Source: Gemmatales bacterium
GTDB lineage: Bacteria; Planctomycetota; Planctomycetia; Gemmatales; HRBIN36
Length of the DNA: 64,000 nt
Direction of reading: 5' to 3'
Assembly: GCA_025060195.1 (NCBI GenBank)
Contig: JANXCQ010000008.1
Span: 62,001-126,000 of the forward strand
Part shown: positions 384 through 37,975 of the stretch, in pieces
Layout of the letters: each line of letters begins with the position of its first letter
How positions within the stretch are numbered: position 1 is the stretch's first letter
Translations under genes and position numbers: made by a program
Notes under the pieces: model-generated
The model's database searches: none
What the model was told of the DNA's origin: nothing
What the model saw: the letters and a program-made list of their open reading frames with translations, nothing else

Positions 384-724
384 GGTCGGCAGGTCTTCTA
401 AGGGTAGGCTTCCGTAGCAATGATTTTTTGACGGGGTTCGAGCCCGCAAACCTCTATTTTTATGTTACCCACGAAACAGATGAATACCAAGTGTCCTGCC
501 CTTGGCAATACGTCGCGCCAGCTACTGAATGCGGTTAATCAAGGATTTATTGACGGTCGGCCGTTATAACGGTATCAGCTCGACAAGAGAGCGCTTCCGA
601 AATCTTCTGGTCCAAAATTCCGAATATCAGCTGCGAGGCTAACCTCGCGGCAAATCAGTTTACATAATGGCTCGCTAAGCCGCAACTCTTTGCTAAGCTG
701 AAATCTTGCAAGTTGACGTATTGC
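384..724. other. Intergenic stretch without a recognisable gene
   Basis: About 340 bases lie between the start of the HEAT-repeat gene and the stop of the next minus-strand gene. This should hold the promoter of the HEAT-repeat gene. I found no convincing ORF, tRNA or strong hairpin. Confidence 0.5.
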
Positions 725-1438
725 TTAGCGACGTTGGCGGAGTTCACGGCGGATTTCCTCGAGTTCACGGGTCAATCGGTCGAGGCGAGATTCAAGATCG
801 CGAGCGCGGTCGGCGGCTGGTGCAGTGGGTCGTTGCGGCGGTCCGAAGCGGGGCGCGGGTGGGCTCAAACGTGGCATCCAGCCCCACCGTGGCCAACCCG
901 GGGCGAAGCGACCGGGTTGAGGCCACCAGGGTGCCCCAAAGCGGGGCCAGAACCCCCAACGACCCCACTGCGGTTGGGGGCCGCGACCAAAAGGAGGCCG
1001 ACGATCGCCGAAGCGACCCCGAGGTCGGTCGATCCGCGGTTTGTCCCCGGGACCAGGACGACGTGCCTCAGGTTTGCCAGAACGTTCTGGCCTGCGCGCC
1101 TCGGTTTGATCGGGTTTACGGGCTTTATCGTCGCCACGCGGTTCGGGCTTTCGGTCTGCTGCCGGTTTTCCCTCAGTTTCGAGGCGCCTGAGTTGCTCTT
1201 CGAGTTGCCGAACCATGTTTCTCGCGAATTCGAGTTGTTTGCGCACGCGTTCGATGGCTTCTTCGCGGCTGGCTGGTGGACGGAAGGGACCAAATCCTGG
1301 CCCGCCACGACCGAACGGGGGCTTGAATTCGGGCTTGGTCGGTTTTTCACTTTCAGGCTTATCGCGTCGTTCCTGAGCAAGGAGTGGCGCACCGCTGGCA
1401 AGAAACGCGACTAAGGTGATAGCTAAGCACCGTCTCAT
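725..1438 (-). CDS. Secreted Pro/Gly/Arg-rich hypothetical protein
   Basis: This 237-residue protein starts with a clear signal peptide (MRRCLAITLVAFLASGAPLLAQ), with an AGGAGG ribosome-binding site 8 bases before the ATG. Residues 55-90 form a charged helix likely to be a coiled coil ('EEAIERVRKQLEFARNMVRQ'). A long low-complexity part rich in Pro, Gly, Arg and Trp follows (about 95-205), and a second short coiled coil closes the protein ('LTRELEEIRRELRQRR'). Two helices around a disordered Arg-rich middle suggest a structural or binding role outside the cytoplasm, but I recognise no family. Long open frames on the other strand over the same bases are by-products of the GC-rich low-complexity sequence. 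Confidence 0.75.
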   Translation of the reverse strand: MRRCLAITLVAFLASGAPLLAQERRDKPESEKPTKPEFKPPFGRGGPGFGPFRPPASREEAIERVRKQLEFARNMVRQLEEQLRRLETEGKPAADRKPEPRGDDKARKPDQTEARRPERSGKPEARRPGPGDKPRIDRPRGRFGDRRPPFGRGPQPQWGRWGFWPRFGAPWWPQPGRFAPGWPRWGWMPRLSPPAPRFGPPQRPTAPAADRARDLESRLDRLTRELEEIRRELRQRR

Positions 1439-1598
1439 CGAACTGTCCTCCTACGAGTTACCTTTGCTTAGATGGGGCATGCGGTCGGGGTTCCCTACTC
1501 GCCCCGATCTTGGCCAACGTCATCATAACCGTGGCCTATTAAAGCCCTATGAGATTAAGAGTCGGCTGAGCGATTATGGATTAATAGTAAATGTGCTG

Positions 1599-2159
1599 TT
1601 AGCGCCAGGGCATAAGGTGGAAAGGAACAGGAGGGGGCAACTGGCCCTTTCGATAGGCCTCCTCGCCGAGCATATCGCGTAAATGTTTCAGACACATACG
1701 CCGGACACTAACCATGTAGTATTGGCATTGCACTTCGCGGACGGTATCCCAGATGCGGTAAAGTTCATCGAGTTGGTGGCGGTAAGATAGGCGTTCTGGG
1801 GGTAGATGGGGTTCATGGGCTTGGTGTTCGTCGAACCAGCGGGCACAGGCTCGATTGAAGTTGATGGCTTGTTGGACTATCTCCCCTTGGGGGAACAAAA
1901 ACGCATCGCTAAGAAATGGAGCATCGGCCAATTCGCGATAACGTTGACGAAGCATATGCAAGTCCGCGGAGAAGGTTTCGGGTTGAGTGAGCACATACGG
2001 CAACTCGCGCGGGTCAAGCAGTTCCCAATCCAGGGCGATACTGATCAGGGCAAATTGCATGGTTGGCCAGCGGGAACGCAACCAGTCGGGCTGGACATAG
2101 CTTTCAGGAACTTGTGGCACCTGCACCAGAACCATGGCCAAGATGGTTTCGGTAAGCAT
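1599..2159 (-). CDS. Hypothetical protein with hydrophobic N-terminus
   Basis: The likely start is the ATG at 2159, preceded by AAGGA about 11 bases away; a GTG directly before it would add one residue. The 186-residue product begins with a short hydrophobic stretch (MLTETILAMVLVQVPQVPES) that could be a weak signal peptide. The rest is mostly helical and rich in Trp, Tyr, His and Arg, for example 'DQLHRxYR'-like patterns and 'RRMCLKHLRDMLGEEAYRKG' near the end. No known domain is recognisable. It is transcribed away from the kinase gene, so the two may share a control region. Coding status is supported by length, ribosome-binding site and normal amino-acid composition. Confidence 0.6.
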   Translation of the reverse strand: MLTETILAMVLVQVPQVPESYVQPDWLRSRWPTMQFALISIALDWELLDPRELPYVLTQPETFSADLHMLRQRYRELADAPFLSDAFLFPQGEIVQQAINFNRACARWFDEHQAHEPHLPPERLSYRHQLDELYRIWDTVREVQCQYYMVSVRRMCLKHLRDMLGEEAYRKGQLPPPVPFHLMPWR

Positions 2160-2468
2160 CACTGGCGGAATCCTTTCGTCGTTGTTGAAGCCCCTCGTCC
2201 AACATCGGCGCAGACCTGTGGTCGTATTAGATAGGCAGCGAAACCTTTGCCCACAACTTAGGCCTGGTCACCTGCAATTTCGTTAGCCGCAGCAAAATTT
2301 GCCCTTAGGTGGAATAGCGCTAAGACTCGTCGCGGGTGGGTTGGCTCTGAACTGAACATGACAAATCTTTTACCTAAGCGATAAAGTCGGTGTCTTAGTT
2401 ATCAACCATCGGCTCGGAGCAATTTCGTGTGTTAGTCTTTTAAGCCCGTTATTTTTGAGGAATTGTGC
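2160..2468. promoter_or_regulatory. Divergent intergenic region before the WD40 kinase
   Basis: About 310 bases separate the divergent starts at 2159 (minus) and 2469 (plus), so promoters for both genes should lie here. I could not assign a -35/-10 pair with confidence. The only clear signal is a GAGG ribosome-binding site at 2457-2460, 8 bases before the kinase ATG. Confidence 0.4.
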
Positions 2469-5400
2469 ATGAGCGAAGTACGTGAGCCCCATGAATCTGG
2501 GGCTTGGCTTGGTCACCTGAATGCAGACATCGAGACGCGCATGGTCGAGGCCTCCTGGCAGAGCGAGGAGGCTGCGGTGGCGATAACTCCGACAGATGAT
2601 GAGCGGAACCCAGCCTCGCGGGCGGACCGGCCCGTGGCACAACCAGAGGCCAGCCCTGAGCGGGAGCCGTTTGCCCTAGGACCAACGTTATTGACCGGGG
2701 TTCCGCGGCTGTGGCCAGCTTCAGACCCCGTCAGCTCCACAGTTACGGATTCGTCAGGCGACACACTACGGACGCGAAGCACTTACGAAGTGTTAGGCGA
2801 TTATGAACTGTTGGACGAGATAGCACGAGGCAGTGTTGGGGTGGTGTATCGCGCCCGGCAAATCTCATTAGGGCGAGTTGTCGCTGTGAAGATTATTCAA
2901 TCAGGGCGGTTAGCGACGCCCGAGGAAGTTCGGCGATTTTATGCCGAGGCTGAAGCTGCGGCTTCGCTGCATCATCCTCACATTGTGCCCATTTACGAAA
3001 TCGGTTCTGCGCACGGCGTGCATTATTTTTCGATGCGCTACGTGGAGGGCGGCGACTTATCTGAGCACAAGAACCGATTGTCGGGGCGATGGTTCGAGCA
3101 AGCGCGGCTGCTGGCAACGGTGGCTCAGGCTGTGCACTATGCCCACCGCCACGGTGTGCTGCATCGCGATCTCAAGCCTGCCAACATTTTGCTCGATGCG
3201 GAGGGGCAGCCTCTGGTTTCTGATTTTGGCTTGTGCACACGTCTAGCCCAGCCGACCTCCCCAGGCGACGAATTACTTGTCGGCACACCGTTGTACATGG
3301 CTCCGGAGCAGGTGGACAGCCGATTCGGGAAAGTCAGCGTGGCTAGTGACGTGTACAGCCTCGGGGCCATTCTTTACGAACTGATCACGGGCCAGCCCCC
3401 ATTTCCTGGGGAAACTGTTGAAGAGGTGTTCAGAAAAACTGTCAACGAGGAGCCCATACCGCCCGCGCGGCTACGCCCCGATGTACCTCGTGATTTAGAG
3501 GCCATTTGTAGCAAGTGTTTGCGGAAGAATCCTAAAGACCGCTATGCAACGGCGCAAGAGTTCGCTGAGGACTTGGAGCGTTTTCTACGCGGAGAGCCAG
3601 TGTTGGCGCGCCGTGTAGGAATAACCGAGCGGCTATGGCGCTGGAGCCGACGAAATCCGGGCACTGCCTTGCTCACATTGGCCTCGGCCACTTTGGGAAG
3701 CGTAGCAGTGTTAGCCATCTTAGGCGTGGCGTTACTCGTAGCTTGGCGGGAGGCCAAAAATGTCGAGCGACTGGAGGCTCTTCATCGCGAGGCGTTGTTG
3801 GCTAAGGAGCAGGCGGATAAGGAGCGACATCGCACATTGACCGTCTTGCGGGAAACTGAACAGCGGCAGCTTCAGGTGCAGCGTCTGGCTGCCGAATTGG
3901 CTTGCATGCAAGCCTTAGAGGCATTCCATCGGCAGGAAGTCGCCACAGGAATGTTATGGGTGACTCGTGCTTTAGCCTGGTTGCAAGAATCAGACGCGAA
4001 GGAGATTATGCCGCTGCGAAAGCTCTTGGCGAGTTGGCAGAATTGGGCCCATCAGCTGGTGTTCTATGGGCGACTACCCGAGCGTTGGCGGAGCTTGGCC
4101 CTGCATCCCAAAGAAATGACCGTGGTCGGCGTCAACCTACGCGACCAAGCTTTCTTATGGCATTTAGCCTCGGATAGCGGCCCGCGACGCGTTCTTCAGG
4201 AAGTTAAAATGGTGCGCGACGTTCGCTTTGCGGACCAGGGCCGGGCTTTGTGGTGTATTACGGGTCAAGGTTGGCAAGTTTGGGATAATCAGGGCCAACA
4301 CTTACTCGAGAGTTGGGAGGCTAGTTCGCCTTTAGGTTGCTGGGCGATTGATCATGACGGTCGAAGCTGGGCCGTAGCCGATCAGCAGCAGAACGTTTAT
4401 TACTGGCAATGGCGGGACGGTTCGGAACAGCCGCGTTTTGTGCTCGTAGCGCGTTGGCAGTTACTTTACCCGGTAACCAAGTTGGCGATCGCAGGGGAAA
4501 CGCAGACCGTTTGGGCGCGGACGCGGGCAGGCATTTGGACGTTGCGCCCTAGCGCAACGCCCAGGACGGATGGTCCCGATCTTGTGCTCATGCCGAGTCG
4601 TTTAGCGGTCTCGGCCAAAGCGGACTGGTTGATTTACGGTTCTAACGTTGGGTATGTCAGAATTTGCGACTTGACCGGAGACCTGTATGCTTCTCCGCCG
4701 TTAGATATTGGCGGCGAGTGTCGCTACGTTTTCATAAGCCACGACGGACGAATCGCGGGGGCATTAGGTGCGCAAGGCGTTTTTCACATCTGGGACGTCG
4801 CCTCCCAACAGCCGCTTGGCGACCCCTTAGATAAGTCAGTACCCCATCACCTGGCGGACATGACTCCCGACTGTCGGCGGCTAGCGACAATAGCTGAGGA
4901 CGGAGCACTGCGCGTTTGGCAGGTTGCTGCTTATCCTCCCTGGCGTGTTCGAGCATTCCTACAAGACGCTGTAGAACGCGCTGTTTTCAGTAAGCTGGCT
5001 GATCATCTGGCCATTGCTTCAAACCAAAAAGCATGTATCTATCGTCGGCACGACGACGCGAACTGGCGTCAGATTACTAGTTGGGACCTGATGGGCTCAG
5101 TCGGCTTCTGGTCTTGGAACGAAGCGGGCACGCGGTTGCTATGCGTCAATCGAGACGGGAGATTTCTGGTCTGGAACGTTCAAAATGAGGCGAGGTTATT
5201 AGCCGCCTCCGGGGCAGATGAAGTCGCCACCCTAGCTGCTTGGGACGACCACGGGCGTTACCTTGCTTTTGTTGACAAAGAACGACGGCTTGCGGTCTGG
5301 GATTTGTCGTCGCGGCAACCTCTTGGCTCAGTGCGACTTCCGAATGGCAACCCCACTGCGTTAGCTTGGAATCGCGAGGGAACTGAGTTAGCAGTAGGAT

Positions 5401-29496: not shown

Positions 29497-31519
29497 ATGG
29501 GTGCTTATGATTTCGCGCGGCGGTTGATCATTTGCGAACAGGAAGTTGAAGCTTTGCGAGAAGAACACGCACAATTGAATGAGGCAATAAGCTGGTACGA
29601 GGGGGTGTCGGAGCCGTTACTAGTTAGTGAATTAGACCGCCTCAACCGCTACCTTGAGGATCTGACCGTTGCTCGGAGTCACACCCAAGAGCTATTATCC
29701 TCGCTCGAGCAAGCCCGGAGTGAGATTCAATATTGTTCGTAAGGTATTAACCATATTTCGGGTAGCGCCGCCTGGGAAAGTCAAATCCAGGCCTTCAAAG
29801 AACGTGAGCGACGCTTGACAGAAAAATTCGCCTTGGATTCTCGCGACCACGAGCAGCATCCTTGGGAAGAACTGCGGCCTCACCTGGACCGCCTGAGACA
29901 ATTGGAAGCTGAGTTGGCTGAGTTAGAACGTACCATTAGTCAGTTAGTTAGTTCCCAGACTCAGTTGCAGGTCGAGCGAAATGCTCTCGAAGAGCAACTA
30001 GTAGAGAAGCAGCAGACACAGTCCCAACTTAGTCGTGATGTCAGTTGGTATGAAAACATTCGTCCGAAGTATGCGATACTGTGCCAAGAATACCAACAAT
30101 ATCAGGCGGAGACCGTCCGCCTGCATTAGGAGGTCGAGGCAATGCGCGCTGTCGTTACCGAGTTACGACAGCAATTGGCCAGTATAGAGACTCAACTAAG
30201 AAGCTTATGGAATCCCCTAACGTAGCTGGATAGTAGGCAATCGCAGCTGCGGTGTCAACGACGTCGGTTACTCTAGCAGCTTACACGCCGAAAGGCCTTT
30301 CTAAATGGACGGGCGTCCGAGTTGAGGCGGCTGAAAGCATTGGCCAAGAAACGCCATCAGGTTATAGCACGTTTTCATTCTTTTGACTATGAAGGGAAAA
30401 AGAGAGAGTTAGACTCAGTTATTAAGGAAATTCATCATTTAGAGCAGAACATACGATCGAAGGAACAGTCCCTCAAAGAGGTGCAAGCGCAGCATTTCCA
30501 TTGTTGCCAGAAACAAAGTCAGTTGAAGAAAGAATTACAAGCCGAGCTCTCGGCGCTACGGGCTATTTATATGAGTTGGCTCGACCGAATTAAATAGCAC
30601 CTACATCAGAAACTTACCGAACTAACCGCGCAGAGAGATTCCGTCGAACAAGACATGAAACGGACTCAAGAACAATATAAGCAAACCCAGGAGGAACTGG
30701 AACGATATCGCAACACAGATTTTGAAGCTCTTCGACGTAAGTTAAGAACTGTGACGGCGAAACTCCAAGCCAAGGAGCGTTGCTTAGAGCGATATCGGAG
30801 ATATGAACCTTCAATCAATAGCCGATTAGAACCACTGTATCAATCTATGAATCAAATCTATGTTGAGCTACGAAAAGCCCAAGCTGATCTAAGAGAAGCT
30901 AGGTATTTGGAAAATCAACTCAATCTGGCATCTAGCAAATACGGGCGAAAACTCATTCACGAGGAATGCGATTGCAGATTCGGTGAAGGTAGCCCGGGCA
31001 GAGTAATTTATCGGCTTGAGGGCCAAATCGGAAGGTGGAGGGCGGATCTCGAAAAACTCCATCGCCGTATTGAAAAAAATTACGAGTGCCTATTTACGGC
31101 GAGTCGAGTGAGAGTTTCTAATTATTGACCGCAATAATTGCTGCTATGAAGGAACTAATTTCATCAACCTAAAGGCTATCAAGGCCTTATTACCTAAGTT
31201 GATAGAGGATCAGTACGAGACAACCATAGTATTCGATGGGAGCATCTGCGGTCTCACGAACAGAGGCCCGACTTATATTACCCAGGAGCTACGAATCGGA
31301 GATGGCGTGACCGTGCATGTTGTTCCGTCACGTCAGTCGGCAGATGAGACTATTCTCCGCATCGCGGAAAGAAAACCCCAGTGCTATGTGCTTAGTAACG
31401 ACCGATTTGCGGAATACCCGGACAGCAGGATCGTTCGTGAGGATCGTCTAACTCGACACACAATCCTGGACGGTTGCATGATCATCGAAGATTTGGACAT
31501 TGAGGTCCATTTCGATTAG
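29497..31519 (+). pseudogene. Interrupted coiled-coil / NYN (PIN-like) ribonuclease gene
   Basis: From the ATG at 29497 one frame runs to a TGA at 31126-31128, broken only by TAA at 29740 and TAG at 30127, 30223, 30274 and 30595. Translating through the stops gives a continuous, very Gln/Glu/Arg/Leu-rich coiled coil of about 540 residues. A change of frame by one base near 31109 then joins a NYN domain in the next frame: 'FLIIDRNNCCYEGTNF', 'TTIVFDGSI', 'VPSRQSADETILRIA' and 'CYVLSNDRFAEYP', ending at a TAG at 31517-31519. Those segments carry the four acidic positions expected of Zc3h12a-type NYN ribonucleases. The parent was probably a single protein of about 674 residues. Default reading: a recent pseudogene. 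Readthrough or recoding is possible but unproven. I do not know the parent's role. Confidence 0.75.
31112..31519 (+). other. NYN (Zc3h12a-like) nuclease domain in the second frame
   Basis: This is the 3' part of the interrupted gene in the shifted frame, open from 31112. It covers the whole core of the domain, about 135 residues: first Asp in IIDRNN, second in VFDGSI, third in SADETI and fourth in LSNDRF. NYN/PIN nucleases use such Asp residues to bind metal and cut RNA. The residues are intact, so if this part were translated it could be active. There is no ATG or ribosome-binding site at its beginning; the first in-frame start-like codon is the TTG at 31199, which would lose the first catalytic segment. 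Confidence 0.7.
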
Positions 31520-34622: not shown

Positions 34623-36431
34623 GACTTCGCTCCCCAGCGAGGCTCGGCCTAGCCTCTTGCGAACAAGGCCGCTCTCCCCTCCAAGCCCGCGCACTGACCG
34701 CGGATGCTCGCTCGCCCGAGTCTTTCACGAAGCTGGGCGAGAAGGTATTGACGCCATGGCGAGGCCCAGGCGTACTTCGAAGCGGGCGAATTATAAATTC
34801 CTTCTTTGGGCTTGCCTAGCCCGGTTTTTACGGCTAATTAGGGGGAACCCGCATTCGACAGTGTGATATAGCAACTCGGATAGCAAACGGCTCAACACCT
34901 TACTTACCACGGACCTTTGTCTGCCCATGTCTCAGGAATCCTTGCGAATTTTATCGCACCGTGATCAGCTAGGGGTGGCGTCTTCGCGGTCACGCTTGAA
35001 CGGATGGCCAGTCCGACCTTCTCCGCATGCCCATTGACTTCATGCGTTCGGAAGACCAGACGGCAAATCTTAACTACTGAGCGATATGTTATCCGTCTCC
35101 GTCGTTATTGGGACTTTGGCACCGCTGAATTCTTACCGGCTCCGAAGGACCCACAGTTGGGATTATGATGCGCGTGAGTTCACACAACATAGGTCGTGGC
35201 TCATCGCGCCTCCGCGTGTTGTCCGACATAAGCGCGAGGCACGGAGCGTGGCCTTAAAGCGAAACGTATTTAGGAAACGCATTTCTTGAGCATGCCCAGT
35301 TTGCTGTAAGAAGGCCTCTAAGATTGCGTAACATAAGTTTTTGCATAAGTTCCTGCTAAGTTCCTGCTGCTAAGCGGGGCGGAGATTTTTACTTCCGCAG
35401 ATGGCAGAGGCAAAGGCACATGTTCGGATCACTCTGGGTTAAACCTGAAAACAAACTTGCGATTTGTGGGTCGTGACAGGGCCATCACCTCTGCTTCATT
35501 GGCGACCTGAAAATACAACATAATCAACACAAATACCTTGTACTGCGCACGGTAGATTTACGATTTTGGCGATGTGTTATGTGATACAATTTACTAAACC
35601 ATTCCTGCCCATGGCATTATTTGCTAATATACACCCGCCGAAAAATCGCCATCGAAGTTTAGAGCGTAATGGCCTGCATCATTTTGCTGCTATAATGCTA
35701 CTTGTACCGTTTCAGACTGGTTACAGCGAGCGTGGCAATTGCTATAGTAACCGGCTTGGAGCTCCCTTTTTACGGTAGGTCAACAATCTCACCTTGTCTG
35801 GGGAAGGACCAGCTCAGCGCGCCGCTTATGTGGGCGCGCCAAAGATTCCAAAAAACGGACGTTCTGCCTCGGACCTGGGTGAGTAATATACGATTGCAAG
35901 TCGCAGTCGCTTGTGGTGGTCGCTGAGATGCTAGGGCGCCGCTTACGGGGGACACTATGGAGAATCGCTTGTGGCCACGTTCGGATAGTAAGCCTACTTC
36001 TAACCCGCGACCCAATAAGAGCCGACTACGCTACGCGGCAAAGGTCAGCAGAGTTATAGAGTTGTTTATGTCCTCGAAACTGCTCTATAATCTAAAGTTA
36101 TGGAGTCCTCCGCGTCACATGCAACCCATTCCCAAACGCTACAGTCGTAACTGCATCTACACGGCGGATTACGCAGGTTTACCGAGAAAAAACATTGCCG
36201 CGGATGAACGCACCGCCGTGGATCCCGGTTGTGCTAAGTTACGGCAATCTATGCTTGGACGCGGCTCAAGATCATTTACGATGTAACACATTATCATGAG
36301 CTTAGCGGTAGCACAACATTGTTAAGCCGCTAGAGTGTTGCACCCGCCGTTATCATCTGGAATCAGCAGCATTGTCTGCAACTCGATCTAAGTGCATATC
36401 CCGTGTCCTGGTGTAACTTAGTTAGCAGCTA

Positions 36432-36458
36432 AGATGCATGGCTTTCCATTATGCATCT
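36432..36458. repeat. Perfect 8-bp inverted repeat with 11-base loop
   Basis: AGATGCAT (36432-36439) and ATGCATCT (36451-36458) are exact reverse complements around an 11-base loop. There is no T run after it, so it does not look like an intrinsic terminator. It lies in gene-free DNA; an operator or a chance hairpin are both possible. Confidence 0.4.
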
Positions 36459-36532
36459 ATGAGTGATTGGTGGTCATTTGTCCCTCCAATCTGTGGCAAC
36501 CTGTATAATTTTCAGTTATGATGGCGGTTACA

Positions 36533-36915
36533 GGCCCTGACGCAAAACCTAGTCGCCGAGCTCTGCAAGTTTCACTTGCGATCGTGCTTAGTTGTTATCT
36601 GCCACGGGCCCCGACGCAATACCTAATCACCGGACTCTGCATGGGGCGTGCAATTAAGACAAACAAACCGCGGATTAGCGCAGATTGACGCTGAAAAATA
36701 TAGTGGCCGATCCCGAGTCGCAATAAGCTCTATCGTGGTGATCAGCAGCAGATTCTGCAGGTGGGCGCACGGAAGTATAAAACCTTACTCGGAATCATAG
36801 TGGGCTATATGCTTTGATTAGCCGCAGATTACGCGGATTGTTGCAAAGGAATATCGAAGCCTACTCCGAATCTTAATGGGCTGCATAGTTATGATTAGCC
36901 ATAAGTTAAACGAAT
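36533..36915. repeat. Degenerate tandem array, period about 75 bp
   Basis: Two related pairs are visible. Copies at 36533-36567 and 36607-36641 agree at 29 of 35 positions with a spacing of 74. Copies at 36783-36823 and 36860-36900 share most positions, including an identical GATTAGCC, with a spacing of 77. A weaker fifth copy lies near 36708-36760 (CCGAGTC...GATCAGCAGCAGATT). The units differ too much for a CRISPR array or an active repeat, so this is an old decayed array or successive duplications. Confidence 0.5.
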
Positions 36916-37210
36916 GCGCGCAGAGGAACGGCGCGGGAGAGACCGGAGAAGTTGAAGCATTATTACCGTATTGGCCCGAACCAATGTGTGAATGATCGGC
37001 GCGGAGCTTCGGCCAGTTGGTTCCGTATTGACATTTACTCTTGGCCACTTGAGTCTTAGACGTTGTCTGGATTATTAAGTGAAACGGGGCGGGCAACAGG
37101 GTATAATGTCCGAAAATCAAGGGAAGCTGACTGACTGTTTGCGTTGCTTAGTAATAAATTGTTGCGACGGGGAGCTGACCTTAACATTACTTATGTCTTA
37201 AGGAGGACTT

Positions 37211-37282
37211 ATGAGACTATCACCCCTGGTTCAAGCTAGGCCGCATCGGAACGTACGATCTGAACATACGGATAGTCCGTGA
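37211..37282 (+). CDS. 23-codon ORF with a strong ribosome-binding site
   Basis: TTAAGGAGG ends 4 bases before the ATG at 37211, one of the best ribosome-binding sites in the window. The ORF reads MRLSPLVQARPHRNVRSEHT followed by DSP and a TGA. It is basic at the start and has no recognisable domain. It could be a real small protein, a leader peptide, or the surviving 5' end of a deleted gene. Nothing on the plus strand follows for 950 bases, which argues against a leader peptide. Confidence 0.3.
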   Translation: MRLSPLVQARPHRNVRSEHTDSP

Positions 37283-37360
37283 TAGTGACGGAACAGACGC
37301 GACCCAATGGCGTCGGCGGAGCAAGAGTAAAGCAGCTTATGTACGGATGGGCCGTGAGAG

Positions 37361-37975
37361 TCATGGACAAACGCGGCGGCCGCCCAGGTAGTAGTAGCCG
37401 AAGCTAAAACGTACGGGTGGTGGCACGGGTTCGACGATATAGATGGGACTAGGGTCATAGATGACAGCGGGGCGTTCGTAAATGACGGTGGTTGGTGTGA
37501 CGATGGTGGCGGCAGGTCGCGGGGTCATGCGGAGCATTTCCTGGACGACGCGTTCGCTCACGCCTTGGTTTTTCAGATAAATAATCTGCTCCGAGGTGAG
37601 CCGAGCGGGCAATCCAACCGCACGGACGTGGGCCAAGATTGTTTCCTCGGATACGCCGTGCTGAGTCATCGTTACGATGTCGCGGAGCAGATTCTGTTGA
37701 GCAGCGACTTGAGTATGCCAGCGAGCCTCGGCCGCTGCTATGCGTGCCTCGTTGCGGCGTTCTTGTTCATCCAGGCTTGAACCGATGGCTGCGCCCGTAA
37801 CCGAACCCAGGGCCGCGCCGACTATAGCGCCGCCTTCAGGATGGCCAGTGGCGGAGCCGACGGCTAAGCCAGCCATGCTGCCGAGTAAGCCGCCTAGGGC
37901 CGCACCTGTTCCTGTGTGGGTTGCGCAGCCGCTAAGAAGCAGCGCCGCTGTCAGCACTCCGTTCAGGTAGCGCAT
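37361..37975 (-). CDS. Glycine-zipper lipoprotein
   Basis: The 204-residue protein starts with a lipoprotein signal (MRYLNGVLTAALLLSGC, Cys17). Residues about 20-68 form a glycine zipper with many small residues spaced for helix packing in membranes ('GAALGGLLGSMAGLAVGSAT', 'GGAIVGAALGSVTGAAIGSS'). A charged helix (about 70-100) and an unclassified domain with 'GLPARLTSEQIIYLKNQGVS' (about 118-145) follow. The C-terminal 50 residues are rich in Pro, Tyr and Val, a style also seen in the secreted protein at 59872. Glycine-zipper lipoproteins usually sit in the outer membrane. The exact role is unknown. Confidence 0.85.
   Translation of the reverse strand: MRYLNGVLTAALLLSGCATHTGTGAALGGLLGSMAGLAVGSATGHPEGGAIVGAALGSVTGAAIGSSLDEQERRNEARIAAAEARWHTQVAAQQNLLRDIVTMTQHGVSEETILAHVRAVGLPARLTSEQIIYLKNQGVSERVVQEMLRMTPRPAATIVTPTTVIYERPAVIYDPSPIYIVEPVPPPVRFSFGYYYLGGRRVCP

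What the first reader, a model, noticed from the sequence alone, without database searches (positions are those of the whole stretch)
29497..31128. Long coiled-coil frame broken only by five TAA/TAG stops over 1.6 kb
Seen directly: one frame runs from a good start to a TGA at 31126 with stops only at 29740 (TAA), 30127, 30223, 30274 and 30595 (TAG). No insertion or deletion breaks the frame over this distance, and the translation between stops stays coiled-coil. All five stops are one C-to-T change from a Gln codon, and Gln fits the local composition. About 15 in-frame CGA codons, each one change from TGA, are intact, although this number is too small to be significant. Explanations: (a) a young pseudogene kept in frame by chance, (b) TAR-to-Gln recoding imported with a phage or plasmid, (c) suppressor-dependent expression. 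(a) is the default, because neighbours use TAA and TAG as normal stops.
Basis: partly seen in the sequence, partly recalled or inferred. Interest (0 to 1): 0.68.

Follow-up and report, generated by a model that had tools for sequence, protein, structure and literature searches.

The report
Decayed coiled-coil–NYN ribonuclease pseudogene
The five stops break a dead copy of a gene for a coiled-coil RNA-cutting (NYN) protein whose intact relatives occur in the same genome and in many other bacteria; it is ordinary gene decay, not a re-read stop codon.

Summary
In detail: one frame, 29497–31125, is interrupted only by TAA at 29740 and TAG at 30127, 30223, 30274 and 30595. A Zc3h12a-like NYN ribonuclease domain follows at 31112–31519 in a different frame. 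In intact relatives both halves form one uninterrupted protein: a second copy in this genome (492 aa), a same-genus genome (421 aa) and about 25 species in several phyla. The window copy therefore carries five nonsense mutations plus a frameshift, and no standard start codon lies ahead of the nuclease domain's first catalytic Asp. Recoding to Gln fails its tests. At the only stop in a strongly conserved column (30223), 17 of 26 homologues have Trp and none has Gln. Release factors 1 and 2 are both present. None of 45 tRNA hits has a CUA or UUA anticodon. Neighbouring genes end in TAA (12), TAG (6) and TGA (15). Absence of TGA among five stops is expected (P about 0.3). Verdict: a recently decayed pseudogene of a sparsely distributed coiled-coil–NYN RNase. 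Side finding: in nine other genomes the intact gene sits directly behind a JukA anti-phage sensor gene, so the family may be a defence effector.

The parts
29497..31125 (+). Coiled-coil half of a coiled-coil-NYN protein, pseudogene; in frame but with five premature stops
   Evidence: HMM of 26 intact homologues matches it in one frame, model positions 6-265, E 6.4e-53 in a two-sequence search
29740..29742 (+). In-frame TAA (codon 82), in a poorly conserved coil column
30127..30129 (+). In-frame TAG (codon 211), variable column (Gln 5 of 26)
30223..30225 (+). In-frame TAG (codon 243), in the conserved WNPxxW motif; homologues Trp 17, Tyr 3, Phe 2, Leu 2, Ile 1, Met 1, Gln 0
30274..30276 (+). 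In-frame TAG (codon 260), variable column (Lys 9, Gln 7 of 26)
30595..30597 (+). In-frame TAG (codon 367), variable column
31084..31117 (+). Interval that holds the frameshift between coil and nuclease domain (model position 265 to 275)
   Evidence: TGA of the nuclease frame at 31109-31111 and first standard start only at 31199
31112..31519 (+). Zc3h12a-like NYN ribonuclease domain, in another frame, ending in TAG
   Evidence: PF11977 E 1.1e-4, 22.4 bits; family model E 3.2e-53; conserved acidic residues kept

Best explanation
29497-31519 is a pseudogene of a protein made of a coiled coil and a C-terminal NYN ribonuclease domain, in a Gemmatales (Planctomycetota) genome. It has gathered at least five nonsense mutations and one frameshift, while the rest of the reading frame is still recognisable because decay is recent (roughly 5% of sites substituted, inferred from the stop count). 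Translation would end after 81 codons and leave no nuclease. The intact family presumably works as an RNase oligomerised or tethered by its coiled coil, possibly an anti-phage effector; that part is inferred.
For: The coil matches 26 intact homologues in one frame and is directly continued on the same model by the NYN domain in another frame. Intact single-frame copies in this genome (C67, 492 aa), in G001 (421 aa) and in about 25 other genomes. The stop at 30223 lies in a Trp column. RF1, RF2 and a normal tRNA set are present. TAA, TAG and TGA all end neighbouring ORFs. Stop types match neutral mutation, P(no TGA in five) 0.26-0.31. The sister genome G001, whose flanking genes are 89-96% identical, has no matching DNA beside them, and only these two of 398 class genomes hold the family: a dispensable, sporadically gained gene.
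Against: No indel inside the 1.6 kb coil, fewer than one might expect beside five nonsense mutations. The NYN domain keeps its conserved residues (2 deviations in 26 conserved columns, ordinary for the family). The genome is a draft assembly in 126 contigs, so assembly error cannot be excluded without reads.
Confidence: 0.95

Rival explanations
1. TAA/TAG are read as Gln here (recoding, native or imported with a mobile element, or suppression).
For: Only TAA/TAG and no TGA among five stops; Gln is the commonest or second residue at two variable coil columns.
Against: Trp/aromatic column at 30223 with no Gln; no CUA/UUA tRNA in the held assembly; RF1 present; neighbours end in TAA and TAG; the frameshift remains. 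Absence of TGA is not significant.
Confidence: 0.01
2. Sequencing or assembly errors in an otherwise intact gene.
For: Draft assembly; no reads were available.
Against: Five nonsense changes and a frameshift within 2 kb, while the long neighbouring ORFs are unbroken and the contig is 133 kb.
Confidence: 0.03
3. Fragments between the stops are expressed as separate small proteins.
For: ORFs of 91-157 aa with possible starts exist between stops.
Against: They cut the homologous protein at arbitrary points; the NYN domain has no standard start ahead of its first catalytic Asp (31127), the first being TTG at 31199.
Confidence: 0.02

Closest known systems
Zc3h12a-like NYN ribonucleases (Pfam PF11977)
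   Same: The domain at 31112-31519 matches most of the profile (positions 6-132 of 154); the G001 homologue passes the curated cut-off (29.5 against 23 bits).
   Different: Here it follows a long coiled coil, is split off by a frameshift, and scores 22.4 bits, just under the cut-off.
Intact coiled-coil-NYN proteins (G000:C67, G001:C165, Shewanella, Achromobacter, Pseudomonas and others)
   Same: Same order of motifs: WYE, WNPxxW, YxxFD, IHxEC..FG.GSP, then NYN.
   Different: They are one open frame; the window copy has a longer coil with a repeated N-terminal part and is broken.
Genetic codes that read TAA/TAG as Gln
   Same: Only TAA and TAG interrupt the coil frame.
   Different: No suppressor tRNA found, RF1 present, another residue at the conserved site, and a frameshift in addition.

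Membership tests
TAA/TAG-to-Gln recoding | Homologues carry Gln at the stop positions | tested here: not met
   Codon 243: Trp 17, Gln 0 of 26; the other columns are variable
TAA/TAG-to-Gln recoding | tRNA with CUA or UUA anticodon | tested here: not met
   45 tRNA hits in the own genome, none with these anticodons; the one hit ARAGORN did not call reads by eye as UCU; assembly 93% complete
TAA/TAG-to-Gln recoding | Loss or change of RF1, TAA/TAG avoided as terminators | tested here: not met
   RF1 and RF2 both present; 12 TAA and 6 TAG among the stops of 33 long ORFs
Coiled-coil-NYN ribonuclease family | Coil followed by NYN domain, collinear with intact homologues | tested here: met
   Model positions 6-265 (coil) and 275-403 (NYN), in two frames
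Coiled-coil-NYN ribonuclease family | One uninterrupted reading frame | tested here: not met
   Five stops and a frameshift; hence a pseudogene of the family, not a working member
Zc3h12a-like NYN RNase (PF11977) | Score above curated cut-off and conserved acidic residues | tested here: inconclusive
   22.4 against 23 bits, but acidic residues invariant in the aligned family are kept
Zc3h12a-like NYN RNase (PF11977) | RNase activity | not testable with these tools
   needs an assay of an intact homologue

The most novel reading that the evidence does not exclude
The intact family (not this broken copy) is an undescribed nuclease effector of the Juk anti-phage system: nine of the fetched homologues lie directly behind a JukA gene, and others beside a viperin, a GmrSD-like gene or a type I restriction gene.
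Probability: 0.4. Interest if true: 0.45.

Novelty: new member of a known kind. Interest (0 to 1): 0.18.

Why it matters
It removes a candidate for stop-codon recoding and shows how one is tested: place the stops in homologue columns, look for release factors and tRNAs, and check whether the gene continues in another frame. It also points to a little-described coiled-coil–NYN RNase family that is often found near anti-phage defence genes.

Tried and rejected
Recoding and suppression. A tandem DNA repeat as source of the longer coil: no DNA repeats found; the repetition is visible only at protein-profile level. Orthologous locus in the sister genome for dating the decay: its contigs carry other DNA there, and the stretch downstream of its PIG-L gene lies elsewhere in the window's genome. 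Pfam hits of the coil (BLOC1_2, CENP-F and others) are below cut-off and are coiled-coil noise. Weak PADLOC hits of intact copies to JetC/LmuB are likewise taken as coiled-coil similarity. The tree of NYN domains does not resolve the origin of the window copy. A search with Pfam PF11977 found neither copy in the own genome, so the family had to be sought with its own alignment.

Full report
Observation. The frame at 29497–31125 is as described, with stops at codons 82, 211, 243, 260 and 367. The expected number of stops by composition is about 30, and the other five frames have 26–37, so the frame was once coding.

The missing half. Translation of 31112–31519 gives a 135-aa Zc3h12a-like NYN ribonuclease domain (PF11977, E 1.1e-4) in a different frame from the coil. 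A search of 61 genomes (own and related) found two intact relatives of both halves: a 492-aa protein in the window's own genome (C67) and a 421-aa protein in a same-genus genome. In both, coil and NYN are one open frame. A scan of species genomes gave 29 loci (including the same-genus one, titled Gemmatales bacterium), in Pseudomonadota, Chloroflexota, Actinomycetota, Acidobacteriota, Balneolota and others; nearly all of those not cut by a contig end are single frames of about 360–510 aa. A profile built from 26 homologues matches the window coil at model positions 6–265 and the window NYN domain at 275–403. The frame change therefore lies in 31084–31117. In the NYN frame a TGA stands at 31109 and the first ATG, GTG or TTG is at 31199, behind the first catalytic Asp (31127), so the domain is not a separate standard gene.

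Recoding test. Four stops lie in variable coil columns (Gln in 0, 5, 7 and 2 of 26). The stop at 30223 lies in a conserved WNPxxW motif where homologues have Trp 17, Tyr 3, Phe 2, Leu 2, Ile 1, Met 1 and Gln 0. The genome has RF1 and RF2 (told apart by their PxT and SPF motifs, my knowledge). Of 45 tRNA hits ARAGORN named 44, none CUA or UUA; the remaining weak one has, by eye, a UCU anticodon loop. The stops of 33 long window ORFs are TGA 15, TAA 12, TAG 6. Under neutral mutation 21–24% of new stops in this sequence would be TGA, so none in five has P 0.26–0.31; five stops correspond to about 85–90 substitutions, or 5% of sites.

Setting. The gene sits between a PIG-L family gene and a NIF3 gene. 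In the same-genus genome G001 these flanking genes are 89% and 96% identical, but the DNA next to them does not match the window copy, and G001's own coiled-coil–NYN gene is on another contig. Only these two of 398 class genomes have the family. This is the pattern of a sporadically acquired, dispensable gene. The NYN domain deviates at 2 of 26 conserved columns, within the range of intact relatives: decay is recent.

Function of the intact family (inferred). In nine loci (Bordetella, Achromobacter, Acidovorax, Comamonas, Variovorax, Hydrogenophaga, three Pseudomonas) a JukA homologue lies directly upstream, preceded by another shared gene. Of the other loci whose neighbours I checked, one has a prokaryotic viperin (L104), one a GmrSD-like gene (L092) and one a type I restriction subunit (L084); several had no recognised defence gene. 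A review describes Juk as the sensor JukA with diverse effectors, JukB among them (PMC13282480). The coiled-coil–NYN proteins tested matched no Juk model of PADLOC. I infer that the family may be an RNase effector; nothing here tests it. No JukA was found beside the window copy; distant, partial JukA-like matches lie elsewhere in both genomes of the genus.

Verdict. A real, well-observed feature with an ordinary explanation: a recent pseudogene with five nonsense mutations and a frameshift.

Noticed in passing
L085, L088, L089, L090, L091, L095, L101, L105, L107 (about 460-3420): Conserved three-gene order in Betaproteobacteria and Pseudomonas: a small gene (with an HTH domain in L101), a JukA homologue, then the intact coiled-coil-NYN RNase gene, which PADLOC did not name in the copies scanned; a possible Juk effector variant.
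   Followed up: partly
L104 1013-2062; L092 346-2037; L084 1-1791: Other homologues lie beside a prokaryotic viperin, a GmrSD-like gene and a type I restriction subunit, i.e. in likely defence islands.
   Followed up: partly
L057 (G000:C41:999-1091): The genome has a predicted selenocysteine tRNA (anticodon UCA), so UGA may be read as Sec in some of its genes.
   Followed up: no
window 34695-37361: A 2.7 kb stretch with few ORFs over 100 aa, not examined.
   Followed up: no
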